Below, in pieces: positions 17,827-31,792 of a DNA stretch of 44,993 nt. The translations under genes and the position numbers were made by a program. Source of the stretch: a virus; IMG/VR virus record IMGVR_UViG_3300031851_000046, positions 1-44,993 of that record; one strand, written 5' to 3'. The notes beneath the pieces are model-generated. The model saw only the letters and a list, made by a program, of their open reading frames with translations. It was not told the DNA's origin and did no database searches. Position 1 is the stretch's first letter; every line of letters starts with the position of its first letter.

Positions 17827-17936
17827 TTCAACTATCTTCTTGCACAATACAACTACCGTAAGTGATTGACTGATAGATACTTAGCGCCGGCGCTCTGCCC
17901 ACAGAGCTAACTACTTGGTAGTCAGTAGCTTAGGGG
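17827..17936. repeat. Composite dyad element, copy 1 (full)
   Basis: Box (TTCAACTA, then TTGCACAATACAACTACC), left arm with GATTGACTGATAGATACTTAG, GC-rich core (CGCCGGCG), right arm CTAACTACTTGGTAGTCAGT. The arms pair with each other. It lies between the promoter of the 17567 gene and the end of the gene at 17938. Confidence 0.75.
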
Positions 17937-17937
17937 A

Positions 17938-18105
17938 CTATGCGTTCAGTTGACGCTCTAGCTGTTGAATGCGTCTGTCAATGTCAACCTGTACAGATTG
18001 GATCTGATTGGCTTCGTTGGCTCTGCCTAAGCGAAGGGCGTTGGCTCTCTGTATGGTAAGAGCTTGTAAAGTTGAGATGAGTCTCTTGATTCTTTCTTGT
18101 ATCAT
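17938..18105 (-). CDS. Small coiled-coil protein
   Basis: A 55-residue protein with a heptad-like helix throughout (MIQERIKRLISTLQALTIQR ... DIDRRIQQLERQLNA). It is the last gene of a four-gene operon starting at 18563. Its leader has no strong Shine-Dalgarno but contains a CA-rich run (AACAACCAACACACAAGAAC) also seen elsewhere in the region. Confidence 0.55.
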   Translation of the reverse strand: MIQERIKRLISTLQALTIQRANALRLGRANEANQIQSVQVDIDRRIQQLERQLNA

Positions 18106-18127
18106 GTTCTTGTGTGTTGGTTGTTGG

Positions 18128-18283
18128 CTATGCCTTGATCAGACGGTAGCGTCTACGACGCTCGCCCTTGTTGTTCGCGAGCCGTGCCTTATATAAGGCT
18201 TGAGCTTGACGCTTGTACATGGGCATGGATTCAGTGATCCAACCCGACTTGGCAGTGAATGCGATTGATTGAAGAATAAGCAT
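18128..18283 (-). CDS. Small basic protein
   Basis: A 51-residue protein from the ATG at 18283, ending in a strongly basic stretch (NKGERRRRYRLIKA). The hydrophobic N-terminus (MLILQSIAFTA) is too short for a clear membrane span. It is the third gene of the operon. Confidence 0.5.
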   Translation of the reverse strand: MLILQSIAFTAKSGWITESMPMYKRQAQALYKARLANNKGERRRRYRLIKA

Positions 18284-18293
18284 AATGATTGTC

Positions 18294-18371
18294 TTAGTTG
18301 TTTGTGTTATGTGTTGCGATGCCGTAGAATAGCGACCAAGCAACTGCGAGAAGTAAAGCGATGACCTCCAT
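18294..18371 (-). CDS. Tiny single-span membrane peptide
   Basis: A 25-residue frame starting three bases after the stop of the preceding gene: MEVIALLLAVAWSLFYGIAT then HNTNN. Residues 3-18 would span the membrane. The position in a tight operon and the clean hydrophobic segment support expression. Function unknown. Confidence 0.5.
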   Translation of the reverse strand: MEVIALLLAVAWSLFYGIATHNTNN

Positions 18372-18374
18372 GAC

Positions 18375-18563
18375 TTAGGACTTGGAGGTTGGGATGAACT
18401 CGTTAGAGTCTACTAGCATGAAGTGGGTTTGCTTGTGCTGAGAAGCAAGCTCATTGGCTACCTTGATAGCCTTGGCATGAGTGCTGACTTGGTCAACAAG
18501 TTTGCCGAAAGCAAAGACATTAAAGAATTTAGTGAAGTTTTGGTTTTGTTCAATCTTAATCAT
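18375..18563 (-). CDS. Small protein, MIKI/THAKA family
   Basis: A 62-residue protein starting MIKIEQNQNFTKFFNVFAFG and containing VDQVSTHAKAIKVANEL. It is clearly paralogous to the 54-residue protein at 19264-19428 (shared NF, FNV, G-x-LVD, THAKA). It has a leaderless promoter. The fold looks like a beta hairpin plus helix; function unknown. Confidence 0.68.
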   Translation of the reverse strand: MIKIEQNQNFTKFFNVFAFGKLVDQVSTHAKAIKVANELASQHKQTHFMLVDSNEFIPTSKS

Positions 18564-18598
18564 AATAGTAATATAAGGGAGTTTTTAGTAAAAGTCAA
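18564..18598 (-). promoter_or_regulatory. Leaderless promoter
   Basis: -35 TTGACT, 17 bases, -10 TATATT, six bases to the ATG at 18563; drives the operon down to 17938. Confidence 0.75.
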
Positions 18599-18616
18599 AT
18601 AAAAAATGAAGGTTTT

Positions 18617-18844
18617 TTAGTAAATCAATTGATCGTTTTGTCCGTCAAGATAGGCTTGTGAAGTGTCTTCTGTAATGCCTAGCTTACTGATAAGCTTTCT
18701 TGAATCGTTTGAAAAGTAGAAATCTCCATCATAGCCGATTTTCCATGCTAGGCGAATGATTGCATCTGTATCGTTAAGTAAGTAGTGCTTACGCACGGCT
18801 CGGTCAATTGTGTTGAGTTTGGACTCTAGTTTTGTATATGTCAT
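18617..18844 (-). CDS. Small unknown protein, leaderless
   Basis: A 75-residue protein (TKLESKLNTIDRAVRKHYLL ... QAYLDGQNDQLIY), mostly helical. Its promoter overlaps the stop codon of the gene upstream. No family recognised. Confidence 0.6.
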   Translation of the reverse strand: MTYTKLESKLNTIDRAVRKHYLLNDTDAIIRLAWKIGYDGDFYFSNDSRKLISKLGITEDTSQAYLDGQNDQLIY

Positions 18845-18879
18845 AATTGTAATCTAAAGGATTAACGGCAGAATGTCAA
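18845..18879 (-). promoter_or_regulatory. Leaderless promoter overlapping a stop codon
   Basis: -35 TTGACA, 17 bases, -10 TAGATT, six bases to the ATG at 18844. The TGA stop of the 18876 gene lies inside the TTGACA. Confidence 0.72.
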
Positions 18880-19043
18880 GAGAAAAAAGGATGTTTTTTC
18901 ACTGAGGACATTGGAACGGCAACCCGCTTCTGAGAGCGGTAAACCCTTGCCAAGACGAAAGTCTCAGCTCCGTCTTTGTGGATACCCTCAACATGGAGAA
19001 TCCTGCGTTTGTAATCTACTACTACATCGTTTTTCTTAATCAT
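18876..19043 (-). CDS. Small basic protein, leaderless
   Basis: A 55-residue protein: MIKKNDVVVDYKRRILHVEG, then HKDGAETFVLARVYRSQKRV and a short tail. It looks like a small SH3-like or beta-barrel protein with the pattern of a K/R-rich RNA or DNA binder, but no family is recognised. It has its own leaderless promoter. Confidence 0.62.
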   Translation of the reverse strand: MIKKNDVVVDYKRRILHVEGIHKDGAETFVLARVYRSQKRVAVPMSSVKKHPFFS

Positions 19044-19078
19044 ATATACAATATAGCAGACAAAATGCTAAAAGTCAA
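19044..19078 (-). promoter_or_regulatory. Leaderless promoter
   Basis: -35 TTGACT, 17 bases, -10 TATATT, then GTATAT and the ATG at 19043. Divergent from the promoter at 19229-19263, with dyad copy 2 between them. Confidence 0.75.
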
Positions 19079-19086
19079 GAAAAACA

Positions 19087-19195
19087 TTCAACTAAGTTTT
19101 TGCACGATTCTCCTACCCTAAGTTACTGATGGTCAGATAGTTAGCGCCTGCCGGCGGGTCCGCGACCCTAACTACTTGATAATCATAAACTTAGG
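19087..19195. repeat. Composite dyad element, copy 2 (full)
   Basis: Box TTCAACTA ... TTGCACGATTCTCCTACC, left arm CTAAGTTACTGATGGTCAGA then TAGTTAG, GC-rich core (GCCTGCCGGCGGGT), right arm CTAACTACTTGATAATCATA ending AACTTAG. Outer CTAAGTT pairs with AACTTAG and inner TAGTTAG with CTAACTA. It lies between divergent promoters. Confidence 0.8.
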
Positions 19196-19228
19196 ATACA
19201 AAAAAAGTGAAAAAAGTGAAAATAAAAC

Positions 19229-19263
19229 TTGACTTTTGCGGATTCTTTTGTTATATTGTTTGT
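19229..19263 (+). promoter_or_regulatory. Leaderless promoter
   Basis: -35 TTGACT (19229-19234), 17 bases, -10 TATATT (19252-19257), GTTTGT, then the ATG at 19264. Confidence 0.78.
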
Positions 19264-19428
19264 ATGATTAAGATAATAAAGAATGCAAACTTTCAAGAAT
19301 GGTTTAACGTAATGCTCAATGGCGAGCTTGTAGATAACGCAAGGACTCATGCTAAAGCCTTGGTAATAGCCAAGAAGCTAGAAAAGAAGCTCCCGAATAC
19401 CATACCAACAGGAGCGAGACTTAAGTAA
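19264..19428 (+). CDS. Small protein, MIKI/THAKA family
   Basis: A 54-residue protein: MIKIIKNANFQEWFNVMLNG then ELVDNARTHAKALVIAKKLE. Paralogue of the protein at 18375-18563. The upstream in-frame MKKVKIKLDF is inside the promoter, so the ATG at 19264 is the start. Confidence 0.7.
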   Translation: MIKIIKNANFQEWFNVMLNGELVDNARTHAKALVIAKKLEKKLPNTIPTGARLK

Positions 19429-19513
19429 AAAAAAGTAAAATAATCCTTGACAAAACGCCTTTTGTGCTGTATGTTATACATATACTAAGATAAACAAAAT
19501 AACAAAAATAAAA

Positions 19514-19585
19514 ATGAACTTAACTCAAAGAGAAAAAATCCTCCTCAAATTCGTAATCGCTAAGCAAAAAAAAGTGAAGAAATAA
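19514..19585 (+). CDS. Tiny basic peptide
   Basis: A 23-residue frame (MNLTQREKILLKFVIAKQKK) with its own promoter (TTGACA at about 19446, TATGTT 17 bases later) and a leader of about 40 bases rich in A. Basic amphipathic helix; function unknown. Confidence 0.4.
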   Translation: MNLTQREKILLKFVIAKQKKVKK

Positions 19586-19654
19586 TTTGCTTTTTCGCTC
19601 CACCTGTGTTACATTGTATATAGAAAGTTAAGTTAATAAGAAAGAAAAAAAGTT

Positions 19655-19843
19655 ATGACAAAATCCGAAATGCTCAAAGAAATCTCAATCCTTCACGAAA
19701 CGCTTGTCGATTGCGTTCTAACCATTGCCGACAAGGTTGCGATTCGCAACGAGATCGGTGACCTTCAAGACAAGGTCGCTCTTCTCGACTTCCGTAATGA
19801 AGGCGAGGATTTCGACTTCGGTCATCACTCCGAATGGGAGTAA
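19655..19843 (+). CDS. Small helical acidic protein
   Basis: A 62-residue protein (MTKSEMLKEISILHETLVDC ... DFGHHSEWE). Its promoter (TTGCTT, 17 bases, TACATT) makes a leader of about 35 bases before the ATG, so this gene is not leaderless. It is followed 27 bases later by a second gene. Confidence 0.6.
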   Translation: MTKSEMLKEISILHETLVDCVLTIADKVAIRNEIGDLQDKVALLDFRNEGEDFDFGHHSEWE

Positions 19844-19870
19844 ACCTTTAACCCTAATACATAAAAAATC

Positions 19871-20074
19871 ATGTCATCATTCCAAATCAAATTCCGTATC
19901 AATGAGGTCAATCGTAACCTCGCAAACGCTACCGACTCGCAAGAGATCGCCAAACTTGAGAACGATCTCAAGGAATGGAAAAAGATCCTTTTCGAGGTCG
20001 AAATGACCGAATTCGAGGAGCGTGTTGGCTTCAAGTCCATGGAACAAAACCATGGTGTTTGGAACGAACGCTAA
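19871..20074 (+). CDS. Small coiled-coil protein
   Basis: A 67-residue protein (SSFQIKFRINEVNRNLANAT ... EIAKLENDLKEWKKILFEVE), likely a helical hairpin. No separate promoter is seen, so it is probably co-transcribed with the 19655 gene. Confidence 0.6.
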   Translation: MSSFQIKFRINEVNRNLANATDSQEIAKLENDLKEWKKILFEVEMTEFEERVGFKSMEQNHGVWNER

Positions 20075-20104
20075 AAGTTCCTTAAGTAAATAATTAAAAA
20101 AAGC

Positions 20105-20139
20105 TTGCAATTAGCAAAAAAGCGTGTTATGTTATATAC
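20105..20139 (+). promoter_or_regulatory. Leaderless promoter
   Basis: -35 TTGCAA (20105-20110), 17 bases, -10 TATGTT, ATATAC, then ATG at 20140. Confidence 0.65.
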
Positions 20140-20265
20140 ATGAAACCAAAAAAGACAAAGCCCGCAAAATTTCGTTCCAAAGTCCTTTTCACTAAGGCTC
20201 GTCCTCACAAGGACAAGTCCAAGTATGACCGAAAACCAAAGCACCGCAAGGTAATCGGCGCTTAA
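20140..20265 (+). CDS. 41-residue highly basic peptide
   Basis: MKPKKTKPAKFRSKVLFTKA, then RPHKDKSKYDRKPKHRKVIG and A. More than a third of residues are Lys or Arg, with no acidic cluster. It has its own leaderless promoter. Such peptides usually bind nucleic acid, and a ribosome or RNA-polymerase target is possible. Its TAA stop starts dyad copy 3. Confidence 0.6.
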   Translation: MKPKKTKPAKFRSKVLFTKARPHKDKSKYDRKPKHRKVIGA

Positions 20266-20333
20266 GTCCTTGACTATCATATAGTTAGGCTAGCCGCCTG
20301 CTGGCAATAGAATTGTGCAATAAAATAGTTGAA
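20263..20333. repeat. Composite dyad element, copy 3 (half type)
   Basis: One arm (TAAGTCCTTGACTATCATAT then AGTTAG), GC-rich core (GCTAGCCGCCTGCTGGC), then the box in reverse orientation (AGAATTGTGCAATAAAATAG then TTGAA). The second arm is missing. The first three bases are the stop codon of the 20140 gene. Confidence 0.75.
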
Positions 20334-20351
20334 AGGTAAGTGAGAAAAAGC

Positions 20352-20386
20352 TTGCGTCTTGCCGGTTTTTTGGTTACATTGTATAT
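20352..20386 (+). promoter_or_regulatory. Leaderless promoter
   Basis: -35 TTGCGT, 17 bases, -10 TACATT, GTATAT, then ATG at 20387. Confidence 0.6.
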
Positions 20387-20554
20387 ATGTTAATTAAGAT
20401 TAAATCTCTCTCTACTTGGTCAAATGTCGTTTTCGATTTATACATCGGAAATAATTACTCCGGTTCCTTTGATTCTTTTGAGCAAGCTCAAAGCCACGGA
20501 CTTAAAGTCACAAGCTCTCTTCTTTTGTTAGAAAATAATGTAAAAAAAGCTTGA
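20387..20554 (+). CDS. Small protein, WS-V family
   Basis: A 55-residue protein: MLIKIKSLSTWSNVVFDLYI, then GNNYSGSFDSFEQAQSHGLK. It shares the pattern MxxIxI...WSxxxxxxI of the proteins at 20608 and 22490. The TGA stop lies inside the TTGACT of the next promoter. Confidence 0.6.
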   Translation: MLIKIKSLSTWSNVVFDLYIGNNYSGSFDSFEQAQSHGLKVTSSLLLLENNVKKA

Positions 20555-20607
20555 CTTTTAGCGTTTTATGTGATAGATTATATCTATAAAGTTAATTAAA
20601 TAAGAAT

Positions 20608-20796
20608 ATGAATAAAATACAAGTAAGAATCCAAGAGTGGTCAACTCATTGGTCAGTAAAAATCTTCGATCAAGGCATCGACTCAAACGGCAACGATCGC
20701 CCACGAGTTCGCACGGCATCGAGTCAATCGCATCTTGATAAGATCATGCGAGACGAAGGTCTCAATCAGTTTCGTTTTAATGTTGTCTTTCAATAA
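20608..20796 (+). CDS. Small protein, WS-V family
   Basis: A 62-residue protein: MNKIQVRIQEWSTHWSVKIF, then DRPRVRTASSQSHLDKIMRD. The EWSxxxSVKI and PRVR segments match the protein at 22490. Promoter TTGACT, 17 bases, TAGATT gives a leader of about 20 bases. Confidence 0.65.
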   Translation: MNKIQVRIQEWSTHWSVKIFDQGIDSNGNDRPRVRTASSQSHLDKIMRDEGLNQFRFNVVFQ

Positions 20797-20820
20797 TAAG
20801 AAAAAAAAGTAAAATAAAGC

Positions 20821-20855
20821 TTGACTTTTAACCAAAACTAGATTAGATTATATAT
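20821..20855 (+). promoter_or_regulatory. Leaderless promoter
   Basis: -35 TTGACT (20821-20826), 17 bases, -10 TAGATT, ATATAT, then ATG at 20856. An A-rich run (AAAAAAAAGTAAAATAAAG) precedes the -35, as at several neighbours, and may act as an UP element. Confidence 0.75.
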
Positions 20856-21140
20856 ATGATTAAGAACAAAACATTCATCGCAAACATTCATGTCTCATCA
20901 ATAGAGAGAGAGGAGAAACTTCCATTGTGGAATACTCATATGAATGCTTTTGTGGATACTCACATGACAAACAACATCTTTGAGATTCAAGCTGAAGACA
21001 AGCACGAAGTAAGAAGAAAAGTAAAAGCTCTTATAGGCAAACTTCAGACTAAAGTCCAATTCAAGCGTGGTCTTGAAACTAAGCAAGGCGATAATGCCAT
21101 GTGGTACATCAACAGAATAACAGAAAAAAAAGTAAAATAA
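20856..21140 (+). CDS. Small unknown protein, leaderless
   Basis: A 94-residue mixed alpha/beta protein (MIKNKTFIANIHVSSIEREE ... MWYINRITEKKVK). A beta-rich N-terminus and ending suggest a small domain; no family recognised. Confidence 0.62.
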   Translation: MIKNKTFIANIHVSSIEREEKLPLWNTHMNAFVDTHMTNNIFEIQAEDKHEVRRKVKALIGKLQTKVQFKRGLETKQGDNAMWYINRITEKKVK

Positions 21141-21181
21141 GCATTGACATTTTATAAAAAAAAACTTATAATTAAAACATA

Positions 21182-21490
21182 ATGAGAAAAGTCACAGAAC
21201 AAATCAAACACGCATTCGAAAGTCGCCAACGCAAAGCCGTAGGTAATACAACCACAGACGGCAACACCGTTTGGTTACATGGCAACGCAATTATAAAGCG
21301 TGATCCCGATGGCTTAGTCCGTTGGTCTCTCGCAGGTTGGAACACTCCAACTACTCGCGAGCGTGTCAACGGCATAGTGAACGCAGGGGTTCATCAAGTT
21401 AAATTCGAAGCTGTTCTAAACGGTCAAGAAATTAACCCATCCGACTGGTTCGCTGCTCCACACTCTATCGGTAGACCCTTAGTCTTCTAA
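21182..21490 (+). CDS. Conserved-type phage protein, GN-TDG-LHGN
   Basis: A 102-residue protein with the pattern GNTTTDGNTVWLHGNAIIKR, then SLAGWNTPTTRERVNGIVNA. I recall this arrangement (TDG, LHGN, AGW, TTxERxN) from many unrelated phage hypotheticals, function unknown. The promoter TTGACA, 17 bases, TATAAT is near-perfect and leaves at most three bases before the ATG. Confidence 0.7.
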   Translation: MRKVTEQIKHAFESRQRKAVGNTTTDGNTVWLHGNAIIKRDPDGLVRWSLAGWNTPTTRERVNGIVNAGVHQVKFEAVLNGQEINPSDWFAAPHSIGRPLVF

Positions 21491-21558
21491 GTCGTTGGCT
21501 ATCATATAGTTAGCCTGCCGGCCCACCGGTAGTAGAATTGTTCAACAAAACAGTTGAA
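21488..21558. repeat. Composite dyad element, copy 4 (half type)
   Basis: One arm (TAAGTCGTTGGCTATCATAT then AGTTAG), GC-rich core (CCTGCCGGCCCACCGG), then the reversed box (AGAATTGTTCAACAAAACAG then TTGAA). The TAA is the stop codon of the 21182 gene. Confidence 0.78.
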
Positions 21559-21576
21559 AGGTAATTGAAATAATGC

Positions 21577-21611
21577 TTGACTTTTACAAATAAATGCATT
21601 AGATTGTATAT
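21577..21611 (+). promoter_or_regulatory. Leaderless promoter
   Basis: -35 TTGACT, 17 bases, -10 TAGATT, GTATAT, then ATG at 21612. Confidence 0.75.
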
Positions 21612-22106
21612 ATGATTAAGACAAAAGCATTCGTTTTCGATTTCGATGATACGCTCGCCTTTACAGATGCAAAGGTTAGAGTCGTTGACTCTTTCGATTT
21701 TCATGTTGCAACCTTGACTCCTCAAGAGTTTAATGGCGTGACGCTCAAAGATGGTCAACGCTTTGACTTCTCAGACTTTAACAAGTCAAGCCTTATCCTT
21801 AACGGCAAGCCAACCAAGTTGATTGACTTGGCAAGAGATGTTTTTTCTGAAGGTCATTCCGTTTTCATTCTTACGGCAAGAGATAACCAAGCAAGTTCGG
21901 CAATAGCTGAATTCCTCAAAGGCTTTGGGGTTGTCGCCAAAGAAATTCATTGCGTTGGCTCTTCTAAAGGTGGAGACATCGCAAAGGCAAAGCGTAAAGT
22001 TTTGCTTTCGGTCATCGAGAACTTTGATAAAGTTTGGTTTTTTGATGATGACGCTAGGAACATAGAGCTTGCAAAAGACTTGCCATTAAAAGCAAAAAAA
22101 GTTTAA
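21612..22106 (+). CDS. HAD-superfamily phosphatase
   Basis: A 164-residue protein with the HAD motifs: D10-F-D12-DT (FVFDFDDTLAF), T88 in FILTARD, a lysine near 119-127 (SSKGGDIAKAK) and the metal-binding DDD at 145-147 (VWFFDDDARN). It is the size of small polynucleotide or nucleotide phosphatases without a large cap. In phages such proteins act as nucleotide or nucleic-acid-end phosphatases; the substrate here is not evident. Confidence 0.85.
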   Translation: MIKTKAFVFDFDDTLAFTDAKVRVVDSFDFHVATLTPQEFNGVTLKDGQRFDFSDFNKSSLILNGKPTKLIDLARDVFSEGHSVFILTARDNQASSAIAEFLKGFGVVAKEIHCVGSSKGGDIAKAKRKVLLSVIENFDKVWFFDDDARNIELAKDLPLKAKKV

Positions 22107-22113
22107 TAAAAAC

Positions 22114-22148
22114 TTGACTTTTTAAGAAAAAACTGTTACATTATACTT
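22114..22148 (+). promoter_or_regulatory. Leaderless promoter
   Basis: -35 TTGACT, 17 bases, -10 TACATT, ATACTT, then ATG at 22149. Confidence 0.72.
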
Positions 22149-22343
22149 ATGATTAAAACAATACTAAACACTCTTATAGATTCCTTTTGTGCTTCTATGC
22201 TCGTTGGCTTTTTCTCTTTGGGGATTGCTTTTTTCCTCGTTCCCATGTTCGACACTCAAACAGCTATATGGTTGAGCATTACATCGTTCCCGTTTTTCGT
22301 AATCGGCTTGGTGTTCTTCATGATCTTAGATAGGAGAGGGTAA
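22149..22343 (+). CDS. Two-span membrane protein
   Basis: A 64-residue protein with two membrane segments, about residues 14-33 and 40-59, separated by a short loop containing FDTQTA, and a basic C-terminus (LDRRG). Inner-membrane location expected; function unknown. Confidence 0.65.
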   Translation: MIKTILNTLIDSFCASMLVGFFSLGIAFFLVPMFDTQTAIWLSITSFPFFVIGLVFFMILDRRG

Positions 22344-22446
22344 ACTACTGACTATCAAATAGTTACGACTTAACTCCGCCGGCCGGCGCTAACTACTTAA
22401 CAGTCAACAACTTAACGCAATAGAATTGTGCAAAAAAATAAGTGAA
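22341..22446. repeat. Composite dyad element, copy 5 (full)
   Basis: Left arm TAAACTACTGACTATCAAAT then AGTTA, GC-rich core CCGCCGGCCGGCG, right arm CTAACTACTTAACAGTCAAC, then the reversed box (AGAATTGTGC ...). The TAA is the stop of the 22149 gene. Arm changes relative to copy 2 keep the pairing TGAC/GTCA. Confidence 0.78.
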
Positions 22447-22454
22447 AGTTTTTC

Positions 22455-22489
22455 TTGACTTTTGGAGTTTTCTTTGTTATATTGTATAT
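22455..22489 (+). promoter_or_regulatory. Leaderless promoter
   Basis: -35 TTGACT, 17 bases, -10 TATATT, GTATAT, then ATG at 22490. Confidence 0.78.
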
Positions 22490-22729
22490 ATGATTAAGTT
22501 AATAGAAATTCACGAATGGTCTTCATTCATCTCAGTTAAAATCCACGAAGGTGGAGAATTGCCTAGAGTTCGCTCCACGGGCTTGCTTTCGGGCTTAAAC
22601 CGAATCCTCAAAGACGAGTTTGCTCAAGCTCGCTTGTGTGGCAATGAAATCAAAATCAAACGCTCGGGCGTTGGTCGCTTTGGTGGAATCAAATATAAAG
22701 ACCTTCATGAAATGAAAGTTTCTGCTTGA
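22490..22729 (+). CDS. Small protein, WS-V family
   Basis: A 79-residue protein: MIKLIEIHEWSSFISVKIHE then LPRVRSTGLLSGLNRILKDE. Paralogue of the protein at 20608. The upstream in-frame MKVFLDF lies inside the promoter. The TGA stop is part of the next TTGACT. Confidence 0.68.
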   Translation: MIKLIEIHEWSSFISVKIHEGGELPRVRSTGLLSGLNRILKDEFAQARLCGNEIKIKRSGVGRFGGIKYKDLHEMKVSA

Positions 22730-22760
22730 CTTTAAGTAATCCCTCTGTTATATTGTATAT
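22726..22760 (+). promoter_or_regulatory. Leaderless promoter overlapping a stop codon
   Basis: -35 TTGACT, 17 bases, -10 TATATT, GTATAT, then ATG at 22761; the TGA of the previous gene is inside the -35. Confidence 0.76.
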
Positions 22761-23030
22761 ATGAATAAAATTGAAAAACTAATCCAAATCAAGGAAATTG
22801 AAATTTCCGAAATGTCCACGGCTATTGATCGCATGAACGCAAGAGCCACTGCCGAAACGGCAATGACTGTCGCAGTCGCCAATGATGTTTTTGGTGGAAC
22901 TCTCAGAGAGCTTAAAGGTCAACTTTTCGATCTCAAAGAAGAGCAAAGCCGAATCGAGAAGCAGAACGAACTCAATAGAATCATGGGAGAGATGGGCGAC
23001 GAGATAGTCGCCAATAACGGACGCTTTTAA
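22761..23030 (+). CDS. Coiled-coil protein, leaderless
   Basis: An 89-residue helical protein (MNKIEKLIQIKEIEISEMST ... LKGQLFDLKEEQSRIEKQNE). Its start, MNKIEKL, matches the MNRIEKL of the 57-residue gene that follows, so the two may be related. Confidence 0.62.
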   Translation: MNKIEKLIQIKEIEISEMSTAIDRMNARATAETAMTVAVANDVFGGTLRELKGQLFDLKEEQSRIEKQNELNRIMGEMGDEIVANNGRF

Positions 23031-23082
23031 TTACATAAAAAAATGTCTTGACTCTCTGCATTAAACCTATATAATTATATAC

Positions 23083-23256
23083 ATGAACCGAATCGAAAAA
23101 CTAAACCAACTTATCAATGACTTGACAGATGTCGCAAACGCTGGACACATTGGTGCTCGAATTCAGATTGTAGAAGCTCAAGCCGAGCTAGACGAAGCGA
23201 CACAAATTGAAGAGAATCAGCTAATCATGTCCGAGCAGCTTATCCGAAAAGCCTAA
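23083..23256 (+). CDS. Small coiled-coil protein, leaderless
   Basis: A 57-residue helical protein (MNRIEKLNQLINDLTDVANA ... EAQAELDEATQIEENQ). A TTGACT and TATAAT 16 bases apart precede the ATG by seven bases. It is the last gene of the plus-strand run; the following TAA starts dyad copy 6. Confidence 0.6.
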   Translation: MNRIEKLNQLINDLTDVANAGHIGARIQIVEAQAELDEATQIEENQLIMSEQLIRKA

Positions 23257-23333
23257 CCTAAGTCCTTGATAGGCATATAGTTATGCCTCAAGGGAGAGCA
23301 AATTCATAAGTATATAACAAGCAAAGACTTAGG
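23254..23333. repeat. Composite dyad element, copy 6 (divergent)
   Basis: Outer arms CCTAAGTC and GACTTAGG with an inner ATAGTTATGCC. The core has lost the GC-rich palindrome (CAAGGGAGAGC). It is followed by two T-runs (23344-23359), so this copy could end plus-strand transcription before the convergent minus-strand terminator. Confidence 0.6.
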
Positions 23334-23369
23334 AAAACTAAGATTTTTTGTTTTTTTCTTGTCTTATTA

Positions 23370-23404: not shown

Positions 23405-23408
23405 GTGC

Positions 23409-23440: not shown

Positions 23441-23472
23441 ACAACCAACAACCATTAACTAACCATGAAAAA

Positions 23473-24683: not shown

Positions 24684-24854
24684 AATTTTTTATTCCTCTT
24701 ATCTGATTGTTATAATATAAGTATGACGGAATAAGCGTCTTTTGTCAACCTTTTTTTTCTACAAAATCAATTTTTAATTTTGCCCGTACAAGTTTGGTTG
24801 CATAAATACCGGTGGGTCAAGTACTTACAAAAATGGGGGTGGGTCGCTCCCTAA

Positions 24855-25019
24855 CTATATGGTATCCACTATGTTATGGAAGTAACCTTGTTGAAGTAAG
24901 ACCTGACATTCTTGTGGGAAGCAATAGTATACCATCATTAAATCTTCTGTGTTCCACTCAGCTTCACAAAAAATTTCATCTAACAAGCCCACACAAAGAA
25001 GGTAGGTCTCTGCGTTCAT
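24855..25019 (-). CDS. Small acidic protein, coupled
   Basis: A 54-residue frame: MNAETYLLCVGLLDEIFCEA, then WNTEDLMMVYYCFPQECQVL. The ATG overlaps the TAA of the 25019-25216 gene (TAATG). Its TAG stop falls in an isolated dyad-arm-like stretch (24851-24866, CTAACTATATGGTATC). It competes with a longer frame on the other strand, which has no promoter. Confidence 0.55.
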   Translation of the reverse strand: MNAETYLLCVGLLDEIFCEAEWNTEDLMMVYYCFPQECQVLLQQGYFHNIVDTI

Positions 25020-25867: not shown

Positions 25868-25982
25868 AGTCCCTTAGGAGATTCGAACTCCTTTCTCCGA
25901 CTCAAAACGATGATCAATCGCTCGTAGGCTTAACTAGTATACTACTGCAAGTCGTTGTTTTACCAACATAAACTAAGGGGAC
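25868..25982 (-). tRNA. tRNA-like gene with disrupted anticodon arm
   Basis: On the minus strand the parts of a tRNA are present: acceptor GTCCCCT/AAGGGAC (one C-A mismatch), TA, D arm GTTT-loop with GG-AAAC, and T arm AGGAG-TTCGAAT-CTCCT. The anticodon stem halves ACGAC (25951-25955) and GTCGG (25897-25901) are separated by 49 bases instead of 7. The extra 42 bases contain TAGTATACTA and CGAUUGAUCAUCG-type small dyads. No CCA is encoded. It is either a decayed tRNA, one with an insertion in the anticodon loop, or a tRNA-like RNA; a normal class II tRNA does not fit. Confidence 0.45.
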
Positions 25983-26053: not shown

Positions 26054-26125
26054 TTCAACTAAGTTCTTACATAATCCTACTGCGGGCGGGCCGGCGCCCT
26101 AACTATATGATAATCAAAGACTTAG
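26054..26125. repeat. Composite dyad element, copy 8 (half type)
   Basis: Box (TTCAACTAAGTTCTTACATA ATCC), GC-rich core (GCGGGCGGGCCGGCGC), then one arm CTAACTATATGATAATCAAA then GACTTAG. It is the mirror image of copies 3 and 4. The arm supplies the TAA stop of the minus-strand gene ending at 26122. (Copy 7 is only the partial arm at 24851-24866.). Confidence 0.78.
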
Positions 26126-26286: not shown

Positions 26287-26321
26287 AATATAATCTTAGC
26301 TTAGTTTGAGTATAATGTCAA
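26287..26321 (-). promoter_or_regulatory. Leaderless promoter
   Basis: -35 TTGACA, 17 bases, -10 TAAGAT, TATATT, then ATG at 26286. It overlaps the end of the 26301 gene. Confidence 0.7.
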
Positions 26322-26486: not shown

Positions 26487-27220
26487 GAGTTTATCCCTTC
26501 TACTACAAATCCTGTTTCATCTTTCTTTGCTCGACCTTTTTCGATAAGACCAACAACAACACCTTTCTTGTCAAGAAAACGCAAGTCAGTGTCGTCCCCA
26601 TTAACAACCTCAAAACCTTTCCAAGTCTTGGGAAGTTGATTGCGAAACACCACGGCAACATTGCCACCCATTGCAAGAACCATCTCGCACTTCTTGTCGT
26701 TGCTTTCCGAACGAGAGAAAGTTAAATGATAATTGGAAGGAAATTTTTCTTCACCTTTGATAAATGGCTTGCCAAGGAAGGAGCACATTCTTTTGAATGA
26801 CTTGGTATAATCATAGAATTGAGTCTTGTCGAATTCTTCAAAGATAGTTGCCCCACCTTCGTTTGTCTCGTCCTCCCACATTAAATCGCTTGTAAGGTTA
26901 AGGCGAAAAACTGCTTGCATCTCCTTCTTTAAGGCTGACTTGATCGAGCTAGAAATTTCTTTCGATAGCTTGGCAAAAAAATCCATTTTTTGCTCAAAGA
27001 ATAACTTTGTCTTGGCAATGCGTGATTCTTGAATAGTATTCATTTGCCCACGACCAGCCGTGTTAAGGCAAGACATTGTGCAACCTTTGCTTCGCCATTG
27101 GCAAACTTCGTAGCCTGCAAGATTCGCAGGAGCAAGGTGGATACCTTTAGTTATGTAACCTAATTTCTCGCCTTTGAGAATCTTTTGATTACCTGATGTG
27201 AGTAGAGTTGTTTTAATCAT
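26483..27220 (-). CDS. Phage protein with C-x6-C-x3-C motif, DUF7227-like
   Basis: A 245-residue protein. Its N-terminal part has LTSGNQKILKGEK, HLAPANLAGYEVCQWRSKGC and TMSCLNTAGRGQM, the cysteine signature of a phage family I know as DUF7227, function unknown; the cysteines (C40, C47, C51 by my count) could bind a metal or Fe-S cluster. A middle segment reads FRLNLTSDLMWEDE and a later one YHLTFSRSESNDKKCE. It starts at a leaderless promoter. Confidence 0.68.
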   Translation of the reverse strand: MIKTTLLTSGNQKILKGEKLGYITKGIHLAPANLAGYEVCQWRSKGCTMSCLNTAGRGQMNTIQESRIAKTKLFFEQKMDFFAKLSKEISSSIKSALKKEMQAVFRLNLTSDLMWEDETNEGGATIFEEFDKTQFYDYTKSFKRMCSFLGKPFIKGEEKFPSNYHLTFSRSESNDKKCEMVLAMGGNVAVVFRNQLPKTWKGFEVVNGDDTDLRFLDKKGVVVGLIEKGRAKKDETGFVVEGINS

Positions 27221-27255
27221 AAGTAAATAATAGTATAATTAGCTTTGTTTGTCAA
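27221..27255 (-). promoter_or_regulatory. Leaderless promoter inside a coding end
   Basis: -35 TTGACA, 17 bases, -10 TATTAT, TTACTT, then ATG at 27220. The -35 is read as codons of the upstream 27239 gene. Confidence 0.76.
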
Positions 27256-27394
27256 GGCTTTTTTTAATAATCTTTTGTGCTTTTTTAATTCCTTCCTCAA
27301 AGCCGAATTGTCCGACTAAGCGTTTGAAGGTTTCCCATGGAATTGTGTTTGGTGGAAGTTTATTGAATTCTTTCATTCTTTCTGTTGCTTTCAT
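27239..27394 (-). CDS. Small basic protein, leaderless
   Basis: A 51-residue protein: MKATERMKEFNKLPPNTIPW, then ETFKRLVGQFGFEEGIKKAQ. Its end runs through the promoter of the next gene. A TTGACT with CATACT 16 bases later lies seven bases before the ATG. Confidence 0.6.
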   Translation of the reverse strand: MKATERMKEFNKLPPNTIPWETFKRLVGQFGFEEGIKKAQKIIKKSLDKQS

Positions 27395-27463
27395 ATATAT
27401 AAGTATGACATAATGCTAGCGTAAGTCAACAAAAAAAACTATAAAATTAAAAGTTTTTGCATA

Positions 27464-27540
27464 CATAAAGTATTGATTGGCAAGTAGTTGTGCAATTGAT
27501 CTGGCCGGAGCCCTAACTATATGAGTATCAATAACTTATG
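27464..27540. repeat. Composite dyad element, copy 9 (variant)
   Basis: Outer arms CATAAAGTATTGAT and ATCAATAACTTATG, with the box fragment TTGTGCAATT and core CTGGCCGGAGC between them, then CCTAACTATATGAG. Here the box lies inside the arms, unlike the other copies. Confidence 0.65.
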
Positions 27541-27554
27541 TAATATCATGAATA

Positions 27555-27591
27555 AGAAAAGCCCCCTTTCCGATACTCAGAAAGGGGGCTT
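27555..27591 (-). terminator. Strong intrinsic terminator, minus strand
   Basis: AAGCCCCCTTTC and GAAAGGGGGCTT form a 12-pair stem with a nine-base loop; on the minus strand TTTTC follows. It ends the DUF932 operon (28676-27617). Confidence 0.85.
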
Positions 27592-27616
27592 AAGTTATGA
27601 TTAAGGTGACCTTATA

Positions 27617-27832
27617 TCAAGCAAGACCTCGCTTGCGATTAGCAAGCCTTATCTTACTTTGAGCAATCCGCTCAATCCGCTCTGCGTCCGCTTTTTGGGC
27701 GAGTAAGCTATGGTAATAAATGCTATCTTCGGGTACTGACCCAAAGTCGGCAAACTTACCTTGTTTTTGATAATGTCCCGATTTCATGTTATTCATGACT
27801 TGGGACGCTCTTGCGTTTTTTGCTACTGACAT
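27617..27832 (-). CDS. Small basic protein after DUF932 gene
   Basis: A 71-residue helical basic protein (NMKSGHYQKQGKFADFGSVP ... RIERIAQSKIRLANRKRGLA). It has a GGAG nine bases before its ATG, only four bases after the DUF932 stop, so the two are co-translated. Confidence 0.62.
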   Translation of the reverse strand: MSVAKNARASQVMNNMKSGHYQKQGKFADFGSVPEDSIYYHSLLAQKADAERIERIAQSKIRLANRKRGLA

Positions 27833-27836
27833 AAAA

Positions 27837-28676
27837 TTATGCTCCTACAAGTTCAGCTTCAAGGACTGCGTCTTGAGCAACGAATCGGCTTTTATCGAAG
27901 CCAACTTCGGTGTCAAGGATTGAGTGCAATGCCTCAGAGCGTTGAGGAAGAGCCACAAGGTTGCCCTTGTAAACTTCGGTGAAACCATTATAAAGGGAAT
28001 TTGCATTCCGATCCCAAAATTCGGGATGGTCAGAAGACTGCCATTGGTTTACAACATCAAGGATTTTACTCTTGGGAACTGCACCCACTTGGCAAGCACG
28101 GATGACGATGTCATTAACTTGCGAGTCGGAAAGCTCATGGTTTTTGTAAGCCTCGATTCTCTTGTCTTGACCAAGCCAAAAGTCGAAAAGGCGACCAAGA
28201 GTCCGAGCGATCACATGATCTAACTCAGAAAGAATATTCTTGGTATGCCTACGAGCAAGTTTGACTTCATTAGTGAAAATGAGATTGTCACAAACAAATG
28301 GAGCATCTCCTGCACATAAACCTGCAGGGAAGCATTTGTCGTGAGCGTTACGCAATCCAACAATCGTACCACGATCTTTGGATTCTCTGTTTGGATGAGT
28401 TACCTCAAACAAACCAAAGTAGCGTTGACCATTTCGAGCGAGATTGTGAGACTCACCTACGACAGAGAAGCCACCATCACTAAGATGCTTGCGAGTCTTG
28501 TCGATCAAGAGGTTGTGAGAAATTGGTTGATAAGAGATAGAACGACTTCCGTCTTTGTTCTCCTCCTTGCGATATTCCACTTGTGGAGTGGTAACTGCTT
28601 GAATTTCCTCAAGAGTTGAAACTTTATGCTCTCCTCCGCAAATGCGAAGATTGTTTTGTTTTTCTGAATTAATCAT
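27837..28676 (-). CDS. DUF932 (phage/plasmid-like TIGR03299) protein
   Basis: A 279-residue protein of the DUF932 type: LARNGQRYFGLFEV, GLRNAHDKCFPAGLCAGDAP, FVCDNLIFTNEVKLARRHTK and the C-terminal LYNGFTEVYKG follow that family's pattern. Members are common in phages and plasmids, with unknown biochemical role. Its mRNA begins at the ATG. Confidence 0.82.
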   Translation of the reverse strand: MINSEKQNNLRICGGEHKVSTLEEIQAVTTPQVEYRKEENKDGSRSISYQPISHNLLIDKTRKHLSDGGFSVVGESHNLARNGQRYFGLFEVTHPNRESKDRGTIVGLRNAHDKCFPAGLCAGDAPFVCDNLIFTNEVKLARRHTKNILSELDHVIARTLGRLFDFWLGQDKRIEAYKNHELSDSQVNDIVIRACQVGAVPKSKILDVVNQWQSSDHPEFWDRNANSLYNGFTEVYKGNLVALPQRSEALHSILDTEVGFDKSRFVAQDAVLEAELVGA

Positions 28677-28711
28677 AAGTATAATAATAAGGGATTTTTG
28701 TTAATTTGTCA
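28677..28711 (-). promoter_or_regulatory. Leaderless promoter
   Basis: -35 TTGACA, 17 bases, -10 TATTAT, seven bases, then ATG at 28676. Confidence 0.76.
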
Positions 28712-28715
28712 AGGG

Positions 28716-28958
28716 TTAATTTCTATAATTTTCGTTTAAATTATCATTTCGTTGATTGTCCCAAGCTTCTGCTCGTTCAGCAATCTCACATAAGGTAACA
28801 CCGACAAGAGCAAGAACCTTGGCTTTAGTGTCATCAATATCTCCACGACCTATGGCGGGTTCAATTAATATCTCATGTATAATCTCCATGCAAGAACTTA
28901 CTGCTTCGATTGAAGTCGGGTTGTCGTTGGATTCGAATTGGTCATCATTAATCTTCAT
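28716..28958 (-). CDS. Small acidic protein, leaderless
   Basis: An 80-residue protein (KINDDQFESNDNPTSIEAVS, then KAKVLALVGVTLCEIAERAE). Helical and acidic. Promoter TTGCAA, 17, ATACTT, six bases to the ATG, weaker than most here. Confidence 0.58.
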   Translation of the reverse strand: MKINDDQFESNDNPTSIEAVSSCMEIIHEILIEPAIGRGDIDDTKAKVLALVGVTLCEIAERAEAWDNQRNDNLNENYRN

Positions 28959-29021
28959 AATTATAAGTATGACAGAATCGAAGATAATTGCAAGAAAAAA
29001 AAGTTAACTGAATTCACTTTG

Positions 29022-29126
29022 CTGTGCAACTAATATAGGTCTATAAGATCAACTGATACAGATAACGTAAACCATTGACTATCAGATAGTTAGCCGGCCC
29101 GGGGGAGAAATTTCGTAACTATCTGA
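29022..29126. repeat. Composite dyad element, copy 10
   Basis: Box remnant TGTGCAACTA, arm CATTGACTATCAGATAGTTA then G, core CCGGCCCGGGGG, then a shortened arm GTAACTATCTGA. A second small dyad (TATAAGATC...GATAAC) lies between box and arm. Followed by a minus-strand terminator. Confidence 0.7.
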
Positions 29127-29140
29127 ACAAGAAGAAGATA

Positions 29141-29172
29141 CAAAAAAGCCGGAGGACCTACATCCCCCGGCT
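29141..29172 (-). terminator. Intrinsic terminator, minus strand
   Basis: AGCCGG and CCGGCT, extended by GGA/TCC inside, form a hairpin; on the minus strand six Ts follow. It ends the three-gene operon from 29808. Confidence 0.8.
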
Positions 29173-29196
29173 ATATTTGAGCGCTCTATATTTGAG

Positions 29197-29352
29197 CTAA
29201 GTTCTTTTTTCTTTATAGTAAAGTTTTCTCAGCAGCGCGGCGTGCTCAGCCTTACGGGCCCGCCATTGGGAACCAAAAAGGTTAGCTTCTTCTTCATAAG
29301 CTAACTCGTGAGCTAGCGCCCTGATACGTTTCTGCAGCGATTCAGTGTTCAT
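29197..29352 (-). CDS. Small basic helical protein, higher-GC
   Basis: A 51-residue protein: MNTESLQKRIRALAHELAYE, then EEANLFGSQWRARKAEHAAL. Codons are GC-richer (GCGCTA, CGGGCC) than in neighbouring genes. The ATG is two bases after the stop of the preceding gene. Confidence 0.58.
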   Translation of the reverse strand: MNTESLQKRIRALAHELAYEEEANLFGSQWRARKAEHAALLRKLYYKEKRT

Positions 29353-29354
29353 GA

Positions 29355-29579
29355 TTAGATCCGCACCATTGAGGTTATACGGTCATAACGAAATGAACGA
29401 ACTTGACCGCGATTCAAGCAGTAAGATCTAAATCCTACTACAGACTTACCCTCTGAGGTGTTACCAAACTCACGGCTGTGAGAAGGAGCACGGACAGTAT
29501 ACATTTCTGTGCGACCGTCAAGCGTACGGTAGACAACCTGATACTTAGGGCTGATTAGATTAAGCAACTTCTTTAACAT
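29355..29579 (-). CDS. Small basic protein
   Basis: A 74-residue protein (PKYQVVYRTLDGRTEMYTVR, then SVVGFRSYCLNRGQVRSFRY), a beta-rich domain resembling small WYL- or SH3-like proteins; the function is not recognised. AAGGA about nine bases before the ATG supports the start. It overlaps the upstream gene by 20 bases. Confidence 0.6.
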   Translation of the reverse strand: MLKKLLNLISPKYQVVYRTLDGRTEMYTVRAPSHSREFGNTSEGKSVVGFRSYCLNRGQVRSFRYDRITSMVRI

Positions 29580-29808
29580 TTTCTTTTTCTTCCTTTCTTT
29601 GTTTTAATATTGATTGACATTCTTCATAAACACTCTCTGCCTCTGACTTGGTATCAAAAGATAAGCAAATTAGTTCTGGTTCTGGAAAATAGGGATGCCA
29701 TGGCGTCGGAGTTTCCTCGAACCATATATCCCAAGTTTCGCTATCCTTATCAAATAAAGGATCTTCTAGAGGTGGTAGTGAACAATTCTCTGTAATGTAA
29801 TTTATCAT
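29560..29808 (-). CDS. Small unknown protein, leaderless
   Basis: An 82-residue protein with a proline-rich middle (EETPTPWHPYFPEPELICLS) and a helical charged end (EECQSILKQRKEEKENVKEV). First gene of a three-gene operon. Confidence 0.62.
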   Translation of the reverse strand: MINYITENCSLPPLEDPLFDKDSETWDIWFEETPTPWHPYFPEPELICLSFDTKSEAESVYEECQSILKQRKEEKENVKEVA

Positions 29809-29843
29809 GCCTTAATTATACGAAATTTTTGTCTGTAAGTCAA
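29809..29843 (-). promoter_or_regulatory. Leaderless promoter
   Basis: -35 TTGACT, 17 bases, perfect -10 TATAAT, TAAGGC, then ATG at 29808. Confidence 0.8.
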
Positions 29844-29848
29844 GTTAA

Positions 29849-30439
29849 TTATGCCGTACCCGAGTACTTTTTCCAAACCTCTAGATCTAAGTCAGTAACA
29901 CTCTTTCCGAGTTGCCTAGCAATATCTTTAAATATGCTAGCAAACTGATGGTATACGGAAGGATTGGTGGGAGTAGTCTTAGGTGCGTTGGCGTATCCTT
30001 GATCTCTTAGAAAATGGAGGATATGCGTATCCAACATAGGTTCGTCAAAATCCTCACGAGAATGCGATAGAAAAAATCGTGCAGTCTTCAGACCAATACC
30101 TCTCACCTGCAACAATCTGTTCAAGGAAACCGCGTACAAATCCGATATCATCATGACATCAATATATGAATTATATCTTTGCTTGTAAGGAGAGATTGAG
30201 TATTCCTTCATGAGTTCCATTAGCCTTCCTTCGGCCCATGCATATCTAATCAAAGAGAAAGGAGAATCTGCGTGCTCACAGAGATTACCATACAAATCTT
30301 TTAATGCAGTAAGAAATCTATCGAGCTTTGGTGCTTCAATTGCCGATTTCTTTCCGGCAACATTAATTGCAAAGAGGATAAATTCCTCAAGCTCAACATG
30401 AGATCTGTCATAGTTAGTAACTTTTGCAGGATTAATCAT
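29849..30439 (-). CDS. HhH-GPD DNA glycosylase-like protein
   Basis: A 196-residue protein. The helix-hairpin-helix LLQVRGIGLKTARFFL (109-124) and the catalytic aspartate D137 in MLDTHILHFL match the HhH-GPD superfamily. K118 corresponds to the lysine of bifunctional enzymes that also cut the strand. A C-terminal Fe-S cluster is absent. It could remove a modified or damaged base; the substrate is unknown. A second protein of the superfamily is at 40333-41109. Its ATG follows the upstream stop as TAATG. Confidence 0.8.
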   Translation of the reverse strand: MINPAKVTNYDRSHVELEEFILFAINVAGKKSAIEAPKLDRFLTALKDLYGNLCEHADSPFSLIRYAWAEGRLMELMKEYSISPYKQRYNSYIDVMMISDLYAVSLNRLLQVRGIGLKTARFFLSHSREDFDEPMLDTHILHFLRDQGYANAPKTTPTNPSVYHQFASIFKDIARQLGKSVTDLDLEVWKKYSGTA

Positions 30440-30639
30440 TAGTCTTGAGGGTTAAGGATTGCACTAAGCTTGTCGTAAACTTTTTGCTTCGAGCCTGTAA
30501 GTCCTGTTTCTTGTTTGATAATGGCATATGCAGATTGTCCTCGCCTTGTCATTCCAAGAAGCTCAAGCTTGAGCATCTTATGCAGTGTGCGAAAACGGAA
30601 TTCAGCTATTCCTTCGGGTGTGTCTATTGTTTTTGTCAT
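30439..30639 (-). CDS. Small basic helical protein, leaderless
   Basis: A 66-residue protein (EFRFRTLHKMLKLELLGMTR, then QSAYAIIKQETGLTGSKQKV), likely a helical nucleic-acid-binding domain. It precedes and is coupled to the glycosylase gene, so it may assist it. The promoter has a poor -10 (GAGAAT) but good TTGACA. Confidence 0.6.
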   Translation of the reverse strand: MTKTIDTPEGIAEFRFRTLHKMLKLELLGMTRRGQSAYAIIKQETGLTGSKQKVYDKLSAILNPQD

Positions 30640-30670
30640 GATATAATTCTCTCAAATTTTCAATAAAATG

Positions 30671-30973
30671 TCAAGCTTTTAATTGCTCATTATAATATTC
30701 TTCGTTAGGTTTTCCATCATCGTGGAGAACTCTAAGCTCTTCGCATTCCGCAGGGAACACATGACATTCTGCATCTGCACCATTCTGCTTGGCATACCAA
30801 TCGGGTGGAGACAAAGGCTTAACTACTAAACCTAGGAAGCCATATTCCGTGAAGTAACGCAGAACCTTGCTTCTACCAATTCCGTTGATCTTTACATTGA
30901 CAAGCGTGCTAACGGCAGGAACAGGCTTATCGGTTACCCATTTGGGTTCGGCATATGTATTGTTTTCACTCAT
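30671..30973 (-). CDS. Small acidic protein, coupled
   Basis: A 100-residue protein (LVNVKINGIGRSKVLRYFTE, then GLVVKPLSPPDWYAKQNGAD), with beta strands resembling a KOW-like or SH3-like barrel (valine, glycine and YFTEYGFLGL). The ATG overlaps the upstream stop as ATGA. Confidence 0.6.
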   Translation of the reverse strand: MSENNTYAEPKWVTDKPVPAVSTLVNVKINGIGRSKVLRYFTEYGFLGLVVKPLSPPDWYAKQNGADAECHVFPAECEELRVLHDDGKPNEEYYNEQLKA

Positions 30974-31200
30974 AGTCTTAAATCTAATTCAAAAATGTTC
31001 CAATGGTCATGGTCTATGTTTTTCTCTGCCCACTTTACTGCTCTCATTTGATCGTAGAAAGTATAATACTTTTGGGTTTCTTGGTCAACGAGTAATGCTC
31101 CACCATCTCTTGGGTGATCGGGTTGACCATCATTTGTCATTGGAAAATCAGAAGGATCAAGCCAACCTTCGGTTAATATCATCTGTGCTTTGTCATTCAT
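30970..31200 (-). CDS. Small unknown protein, leaderless
   Basis: A 76-residue protein (LVDQETQKYYTFYDQMRAVK, then WAEKNIDHDHWNIFELDLRL). Its YxTFxxQxRAVxWAE segment resembles the 25486-25743 protein. Confidence 0.62.
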   Translation of the reverse strand: MNDKAQMILTEGWLDPSDFPMTNDGQPDHPRDGGALLVDQETQKYYTFYDQMRAVKWAEKNIDHDHWNIFELDLRL

Positions 31201-31235
31201 AAGTATAATACTAGACTAGTCTACGAAATTTGTCA
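31201..31235 (-). promoter_or_regulatory. Leaderless promoter
   Basis: -35 TTGACA, 17 bases, -10 TAGTAT, seven bases, then ATG at 31200. Confidence 0.75.
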
Positions 31236-31664
31236 AGCAATTAAAACTCTTTTTTCTTCAAGCTTTGCTGTGCATCCAAACCATCTAGGGCTTTCGTCAT
31301 CTTTATGAACGAAGGAGTCGTACTTGTAGGGGTTATAAGTGATCTCTCTCATTTGGGAATCAGGAAGATCTTTCCATACTTGCTGAAGCATGCTTACCTC
31401 TTTGCTTAACTCTACAAAAATTCCCGTGCAATAAGGTTCAAGAAACCCACTAATCCCCGCATGAACATTCTTTCTCTTTTCCTTGCGAACTCTAGCTTGC
31501 CCTACTCTGCTGACTTTGATTGCACAGGAGTATAACTGAAGCTCAAGAGCGTGTAGCTTAACTAATCCGTTTTGTCTTACGCTCCAACAATTTTTATGGA
31601 GGTTGCGGTAAACGAAAACCTTTTTGTTAAAGTCAATTTTATATCGTGAGTCTTGCTTAATCAT
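31233..31664 (-). CDS. Unknown basic protein, leaderless
   Basis: A 143-residue protein from the ATG at 31664 (MIKQDSRYKIDFNKKVFVYR); the in-frame upstream part is inside the promoter. It contains KNCWSVRQNGLVKLHALELQ and KVSRVGQARVRKEKRKNVHA, a pattern I recall from short phage proteins of unknown function, then a central Cys and a C-terminal WFGC. Confidence 0.62.
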   Translation of the reverse strand: MIKQDSRYKIDFNKKVFVYRNLHKNCWSVRQNGLVKLHALELQLYSCAIKVSRVGQARVRKEKRKNVHAGISGFLEPYCTGIFVELSKEVSMLQQVWKDLPDSQMREITYNPYKYDSFVHKDDESPRWFGCTAKLEEKRVLIA

Positions 31665-31714
31665 ACCTATAAGTATGACAGGTTTTACACATATGTCAAG
31701 CACTTTTTTTCTTT

Positions 31715-31792
31715 CGTATCTATCTGATTATCATATAGTTAGCTCGGAGGAGCAGGCGCCAGCCCCTAACTACCTGTAACTCAAGGAGTTAG
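31715..31792. repeat. Composite dyad element, copy 11
   Basis: Arm CTATCTGATTATCATATAGT then TAG, GC-rich core with AGGAGCAGGCGCC, arm CCTAACTACCTGTAACTCAA. No box is seen. It ends three bases from the 3' end of tRNA-Cys, so on the minus strand it would be in the tRNA 3' trailer. Confidence 0.72.

What the first reader, a model, noticed from the sequence alone, without database searches (positions are those of the whole stretch)
17827..31792. Family of composite dyad elements between early genes
About ten copies of the same architecture lie between genes: two arms around ATAGTTAG/CTAACTAT and CTAAGT/ACTTAG, a GC-rich core (CCGGC-rich) in AT-rich DNA, and a separate box (TTCAACTA ... TTGCACAATTCT) in either orientation. 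Copies 1, 2 and 5 are full, 3, 4 and 8 are half type (one arm plus box), and 6, 9, 10 and 11 are variants. Pairing is largely kept between copies even where bases differ. I know no named phage element of this form; it could be an RNA structure, a recombination or replication site, or a small mobile element.
Basis: seen in the sequence. Interest (0 to 1): 0.88.

Follow-up and report, generated by a model that had tools for sequence, protein, structure and literature searches.

The report
Gene-boundary DNA elements of marine phages
Between the small early genes of a deep, apparently uncultured family of large phages sit dozens of near-identical signposts in the DNA (two palindromes around a GC-rich core), which look like docking sites for an unknown phage protein at the borders of transcription units and whose core differs from phage to phage but is shared by all copies within one phage.

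Summary
The elements are real. The window (a whole 45-kb IMG/VR contig) holds 11 of them at 17.8-31.8 kb. Each "arm" is itself a 25-bp palindrome, TAAGTnnnTGA-nnn-TCAnnnACTTA. A full element is two palindromes around a GC-rich core. Spacing (40-58 bp) and core are fixed within a phage and differ between phages. The elements recur in one deep phage clade, confined to one stretch of small genes per genome and almost wholly between genes, at transcription-unit borders. Their ends lie at preferred distances from the next promoter.

Base pairing does not covary, in arms or between arms, so an RNA structure is not supported. Orthologous sites are nearly always occupied (458 of 471), so a mobile element is not supported. 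Recombination breakpoints do not favour the elements. Between phages with different cores, orthologous elements keep their arms while the core has changed in all copies together. Some relatives carry quite different arms and core at the same gene borders.

The best reading is a dispersed operator or boundary site for an unidentified phage DNA-binding protein, with a phage-specific "dialect". It works like mycobacteriophage stoperators or SPbeta SPBRE sites but is a member of neither. Replication or recombination roles remain open.

The parts
17859..17932 (-). Element 1, full: dyad - GC core - dyad
   Evidence: between gene 17938-18105(-) and gene 17567-17773(-)
17827..17851 (-). Box (B arm) of element 1, promoter side
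   Evidence: box motif as
19119..19193 (-). Element 2, full
19087..19112 (-). Box (B arm) of element 2, upstream of gene 18876-19043(-)
20263..20287 (+). Element 3, half type: one dyad; its first TAA is the stop codon of ORF 20140-20265
20288..20308 (+). GC-rich core of element 3
20309..20333 (+). Box (B arm) of element 3
   Evidence: exact match; 0 expected by chance
20352..20389 (+). Leaderless-type promoter (-35 to ATG) downstream of element 3
21488..21512 (+). Element 4, half type: one dyad; its first TAA is the stop codon of ORF 21182-21490
21534..21558 (+). Box (B arm) of element 4
22341..22414 (+). Element 5, full; its first TAA is the stop codon of ORF 22149-22343
22422..22444 (+). Box (B arm) of element 5
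22455..22492 (+). Leaderless-type promoter (-35 to ATG) downstream of element 5
23259..23331 (+). Element 6, two-arm variant, no box, in a convergent gap after gene 23083-23256
24803..24875 (.). Element 7, two-arm variant (weak)
26100..26124 (-). Element 8, half type
26054..26078 (-). Box (B arm) of element 8, diverged
27466..27538 (-). Element 9, two-arm variant with box-like TTGTGCAA next to the arm
29068..29140 (-). Element 10, two-arm variant, second arm weak, next to a terminator-like hairpin
31717..31791 (-). Element 11, two-arm variant, next to tRNA-Cys

Best explanation
The elements are dispersed double-stranded DNA binding sites (operator or boundary sites) for a phage-encoded regulator. 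Each 25-bp palindrome (two 11-bp half-sites TAAGTnnTTGA, 3 bp apart) would be bound by a dimer; two sit on either side of a GC-rich core whose sequence and length are specific to the phage. They lie at the borders of small early transcription units: after the stop codon or terminator of one unit and a preferred distance upstream of the -35 of the next leaderless promoter, or between convergent genes. Bound protein would set the activity of the neighbouring promoter and shield units from read-through, and the core would give specificity that co-evolves with a trans-acting factor. SHOWN: anatomy, clade distribution, gene-border position, promoter spacing, absence of covariation, concerted core change, stable orthologous position. 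INFERRED: that a protein binds, that it is phage-encoded, that it regulates transcription, and that the core is its specificity determinant.
For: The palindromic consensus is constant across the clade while variable positions do not covary, as expected of protein sites and not of stems. 282 elements lie at gene junctions: tandem 226, convergent 39, divergent 17. Tandem junctions with a leaderless promoter carry an element in 141/254 cases against 68/422 without one, and terminators are present at 77/209 junctions with an element against 26/467 without. 250 element-to-promoter distances cluster at preferred values (49 at 30-31 nt; others near 6, 16, 20, 27, 37, 40), non-uniform against jittered controls. 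Cores are shared within a phage but not between phages at orthologous sites: orthologous core identity 0.23-0.65 against 0.63-0.87 within a phage in pairs with different cores, while the arms do not follow this (e.g. L002 8837 against L028 10358). Orthologous sites filled 458/471, and the exceptions L023/L025 carry another arm-and-core type at the same border.
Against: No binding protein was identified: a comparison of genomes with and without the dyad gave only enzymes and DUF932. 39 elements lie between convergent genes, where no promoter needs an operator. Only half of promoter-bearing tandem junctions have one. The elements are polar, with orientation consistent within a contig (213 against 40), and whether this follows gene direction or the strand is unresolved (44 against 50 of 65 in informative phages). 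Preferred distances may partly reflect copying of element plus promoter as a block. Gene calls are my own simple ones.
Confidence: 0.45

Rival explanations
1. Replication, partition or site-specific recombination sites: directional DNA sites arrayed through one genome region, with the core as the place of action that must match among copies of one phage.
For: Clustered in one region per genome; polar, with mostly constant orientation within a contig (213 against 40), e.g. L029 9/9 by strand although genes run both ways; core nearly identical within a phage and switched in concert.
Against: No PF00589 recombinase in 13 records; breakpoints not enriched at elements (71/344 = 21% against 28% for random intergenic points); in L002 and L129 orientation follows genes (8/8 and 5/5); strong tie to promoters and terminators. 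Other recombinase families were not searched for.
Confidence: 0.22
2. Regulatory shuffling cassette like the PeSL (promoter early stem-loop) of T4-type phages: a terminator-like repeat plus early promoter that lets gene modules be exchanged.
For: Same place in the genome plan: after a stop codon or terminator and before an early promoter, in a region of small variable genes. PeSLs are described as mediating gene shuffling in T4-like phages (PMC4503421).
Against: No excess of synteny breakpoints at elements; no covarying stem-loop; elements also sit in convergent gaps without promoter.
Confidence: 0.14
3. Structured RNA (terminator, processing site or regulatory RNA) transcribed from the element.
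For: Some copies fold well (element 2 z = -5.5, element 6 z = -4.4).
Against: Others do not (elements 1, 3, 5 and 11 z = -0.1 to -1.1). Covariation at or below shuffled level for both folds. No Rfam match to an element at its family's cut-off. Elements abutting a stop codon almost never have an intrinsic terminator in the gap (1 of 96).
Confidence: 0.08
4. Small non-autonomous mobile element (MITE- or REP-like) that inserted between genes.
For: Many copies per genome with near-identical cores; intergenic.
Against: Orthologous positions filled in 458/471 comparisons; almost all exceptions carry another element type instead of an empty site; the core changes in concert while the arms stay with their position, which is not what independent insertions would give.
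Confidence: 0.04

Closest known systems
Stoperators of Cluster A mycobacteriophages (L5-type repressor sites; PMC9283540)
   Same: Many repressor sites distributed across a phage genome, with roles at promoters and in stopping elongation (abstract); specificity differing between phages is from my own knowledge.
   Different: Those sites are asymmetric and bound by a monomeric repressor; here paired 25-bp palindromes around a GC core, also in convergent gaps, no repressor known.
SPBRE / MrpR of Bacillus phage SPbeta (PMC10516654)
   Same: Repeated element in various intergenic regions bound by one phage protein; the window's terminase matches SPbeta-like and Lactococcus 949-like terminases weakly.
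   Different: SPBRE is a 15-bp motif; 99 kb of SPbeta scanned holds no TAAGT-type dyad, only two weak hits; no PF00589 protein found in the clade records.
PeSL cassettes of T4-type phages (cited in PMC4503421)
   Same: Placed between a gene end and an early promoter in regions of small variable genes.
   Different: No covarying stem-loop; breakpoints not at the elements; convergent copies without promoter. The original papers were not readable here.
BIME/REP palindromic units of bacteria (from memory)
   Same: Pairs of palindromic units in intergenic DNA.
   Different: Phage-borne, fixed spacing, phage-specific core, no covariation, stable positions.

Membership tests
Structured RNA element | Compensatory base changes in stems | tested here: not met
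Structured RNA element | Match to a described Rfam family | tested here: not met
Mobile element (MITE/REP) | Presence/absence polymorphism with clean empty sites | tested here: not met
   458/471 orthologous sites filled; almost all exceptions carry another element type
PeSL cassette | Lies between a gene end and an early promoter | tested here: met
   not for the 39 convergent copies
PeSL cassette | Sites of module exchange | tested here: not met
   breakpoints 21% against 28% expected
PeSL cassette | Stem-loop | tested here: not met
Stoperator / dispersed repressor site | Many near-identical sites through the early region at gene borders | tested here: met
Stoperator / dispersed repressor site | Site specificity differs between related phages | tested here: met
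Stoperator / dispersed repressor site | Orientation follows transcription | tested here: inconclusive
   44/65 by gene direction, 50/65 by strand
Stoperator / dispersed repressor site | Bound by a phage repressor | not testable with these tools
   no candidate found
SPBRE | Same motif in SPbeta | tested here: not met
Site-specific recombination site | Tyrosine recombinase encoded | tested here: not met
   no PF00589 in 13 records, some incomplete; serine recombinases not tested

The most novel reading that the evidence does not exclude
A phage-wide site 'dialect': 10-20 unlinked copies per genome whose core, and in some relatives arms too, are rewritten together when the lineage changes its trans-acting factor, so that every gene border of the early region carries a self-specific mark used by a DNA-level process (regulator, replication or recombination machine) that has no described counterpart.
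Probability: 0.25. Interest if true: 0.85.

Novelty: new variant of a known kind. Interest (0 to 1): 0.66.

Why it matters
This is a clade-wide regulatory or DNA-processing code in large phages with no close isolate in the collection searched, visible in hundreds of copies. It gives a clean natural experiment on how a trans-acting factor and 10-20 dispersed sites change specificity together, and it sets promoter and unit boundaries in regions otherwise made of genes of unknown function.

Tried and rejected
RNA hairpin (no covariation). An early impression of compensatory changes inside arms (GTGC..GCAC, GTCC..GGAC) disappeared in the full set. Module-shuffling hot spot. Mobile element. SPBRE membership. 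Tyrosine-recombinase sites. Palindromic core as a general rule: true for L082/G011 and a few others, not for most. Polarity independent of transcription: first suggested, withdrawn after better gene calls. Between-arm pairing appearing lower than shuffles is most likely an artefact of mixed orientation. Element as terminator substitute: elements and intrinsic terminators co-occur and do not exclude each other. Search for the binding protein by presence and absence gave no candidate. No DNA-level match in named phages. One count used a misplaced second helix and was replaced.

Full report
What the window is. The window is a complete IMG/VR record of 44,993 bases, GC 38%, with a distant terminase, PhoH, rIIA/rIIB, a DNA ligase and a sigma-region-2-like protein. 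No named phage in the collection has similar DNA in the 17.5-25 kb element-bearing stretch. Terminase matches are weak and lie mostly in Bacillus SPbeta-like and Lactococcus 949-like phages. The host is unknown.

The observation. Eleven elements lie at 17859-31791, with one more weak dyad hit in a structural gene. Arm hits are 30 against 7.0 +/- 2.7 in shuffles. Copies 3, 4 and 5 begin with the stop codon of the upstream gene. In gene sense the order is stop codon, element, box AGAATTGTGCAA..TAGTTGAA, then TTGAC...TATATT...ATG with almost no leader.

What relatives show. In most relatives each arm is a near-perfect 25-nt palindrome TAAGTnnTTGA-nnn-TCAAnnACTTA. Two palindromes flank a GC-rich core, with start-to-start spacing fixed within a phage and differing between phages: 40-42, 46-47, 48-50, 52-53, 55, 58. 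Phages with the element share the structural module at about 26-69% amino-acid identity, and the elements are confined mainly to one stretch of 12-25 kb per genome.

Not a base-paired structure. In 258 non-redundant arms, Watson-Crick pairing at the variable positions equals chance; the same holds within arms of 171 elements, with only scattered weak between-arm signals. For 49 gap-free 73-nt elements the long-hairpin model has covariation 0.112 against 0.128 in shuffles, and the two-hairpin model 0.092 against 0.095. Folding energies of window copies are inconsistent. The apparent pairing comes from conserved palindromic bases.

Where they sit. With a codon-based gene finder, 282 elements are at 226 tandem, 39 convergent and 17 divergent junctions; 96 of 304 neighbouring gene ends lie within 15 bp, whereas gene starts are rarely nearer than about 54 bp. 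At tandem junctions elements go with leaderless promoters (141/254 against 68/422) and with intrinsic terminators (77/209 against 26/467), so they mark transcription-unit borders. Distances to the -35 have preferred values in steps of about 10 bp; part of this may come from block copying, and the period is not sharply defined.

Stability and dialects. Orthologous sites are occupied in 458 of 471 comparisons. Between phages with different cores, orthologous cores share 23-65% while cores of unlinked copies in one phage share 63-87%; the arms do not show this. L002 8837 and L028 10358 have nearly the same arms and different cores. At the end of the same gene, L005, L024/L032, L023 and L019 carry four different elements, two of them without the TAAGT dyad. 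The place and the GC core are kept while the sequence is replaced, which points to a trans-acting factor whose specificity changes.

What was not supported. Synteny breakpoints at elements are 71/344 (21%) against 28% for random intergenic points, against a shuffling role like PeSL (PMC4503421). No tyrosine recombinase. SPbeta lacks the dyad, so this is not SPBRE (PMC10516654). Elements are polar with a dominant orientation within a contig, 213 against 40 where random placement expects about 92 in the minor class, but gene direction and strand explain it about equally.

Conclusion. Dispersed protein-binding sites at transcription-unit borders are the best explanation (0.45); replication or recombination sites are the main rival (0.22). 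The anatomy, distribution and concerted change are shown; the protein and its action are inferred. It works like dispersed phage operators (stoperators, SPBRE) but fails or cannot be tested for membership in any of them.

Noticed in passing
window 19.2-23.1 kb (+) and 23.8-33.3 kb (-): Early genes have TTGAC/TTGCx ... TATAxT boxes whose -10 ends about 6 nt before the ATG, so most early mRNAs would be leaderless.
   Followed up: partly
window 25868-25982 (-): tRNA match (37.7 bits) about 44 nt longer than the model, missed by ARAGORN; possibly a tRNA with an intron or large insertion.
   Followed up: no
window 32593-32802 (-): manA RNA motif above Rfam's cut-off.
   Followed up: no
L198, L228 and other JALONJ01 contigs (Microscillaceae MAG Prado074): Many tandem and dispersed copies of a very similar dyad (TAACTAcCTGATTATCAATgAGTTA, about 47-bp period in one array) without a GC core; a bacterial repeat of unknown relation.
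   Followed up: partly
L019, e.g. 10905-10970: A different gene-border element TTGGCAtAAAAATCG-CCCGC-CGATTTcgTGCCAA, in several copies.
   Followed up: partly
L100, L082 (G011): Core of this dialect is a perfect hairpin GACCCC-nnn-GGGGTC with four loop variants.
   Followed up: no
window 29849-30439 and 40333-41109 (-): Two proteins with Ogg-HhH-type similarity, the first below the family cut-off; the second is conserved across much of the clade.
   Followed up: no
window 12213-15352 (+): Two adjacent proteins with bacterial surface Ig-like domains.
   Followed up: no
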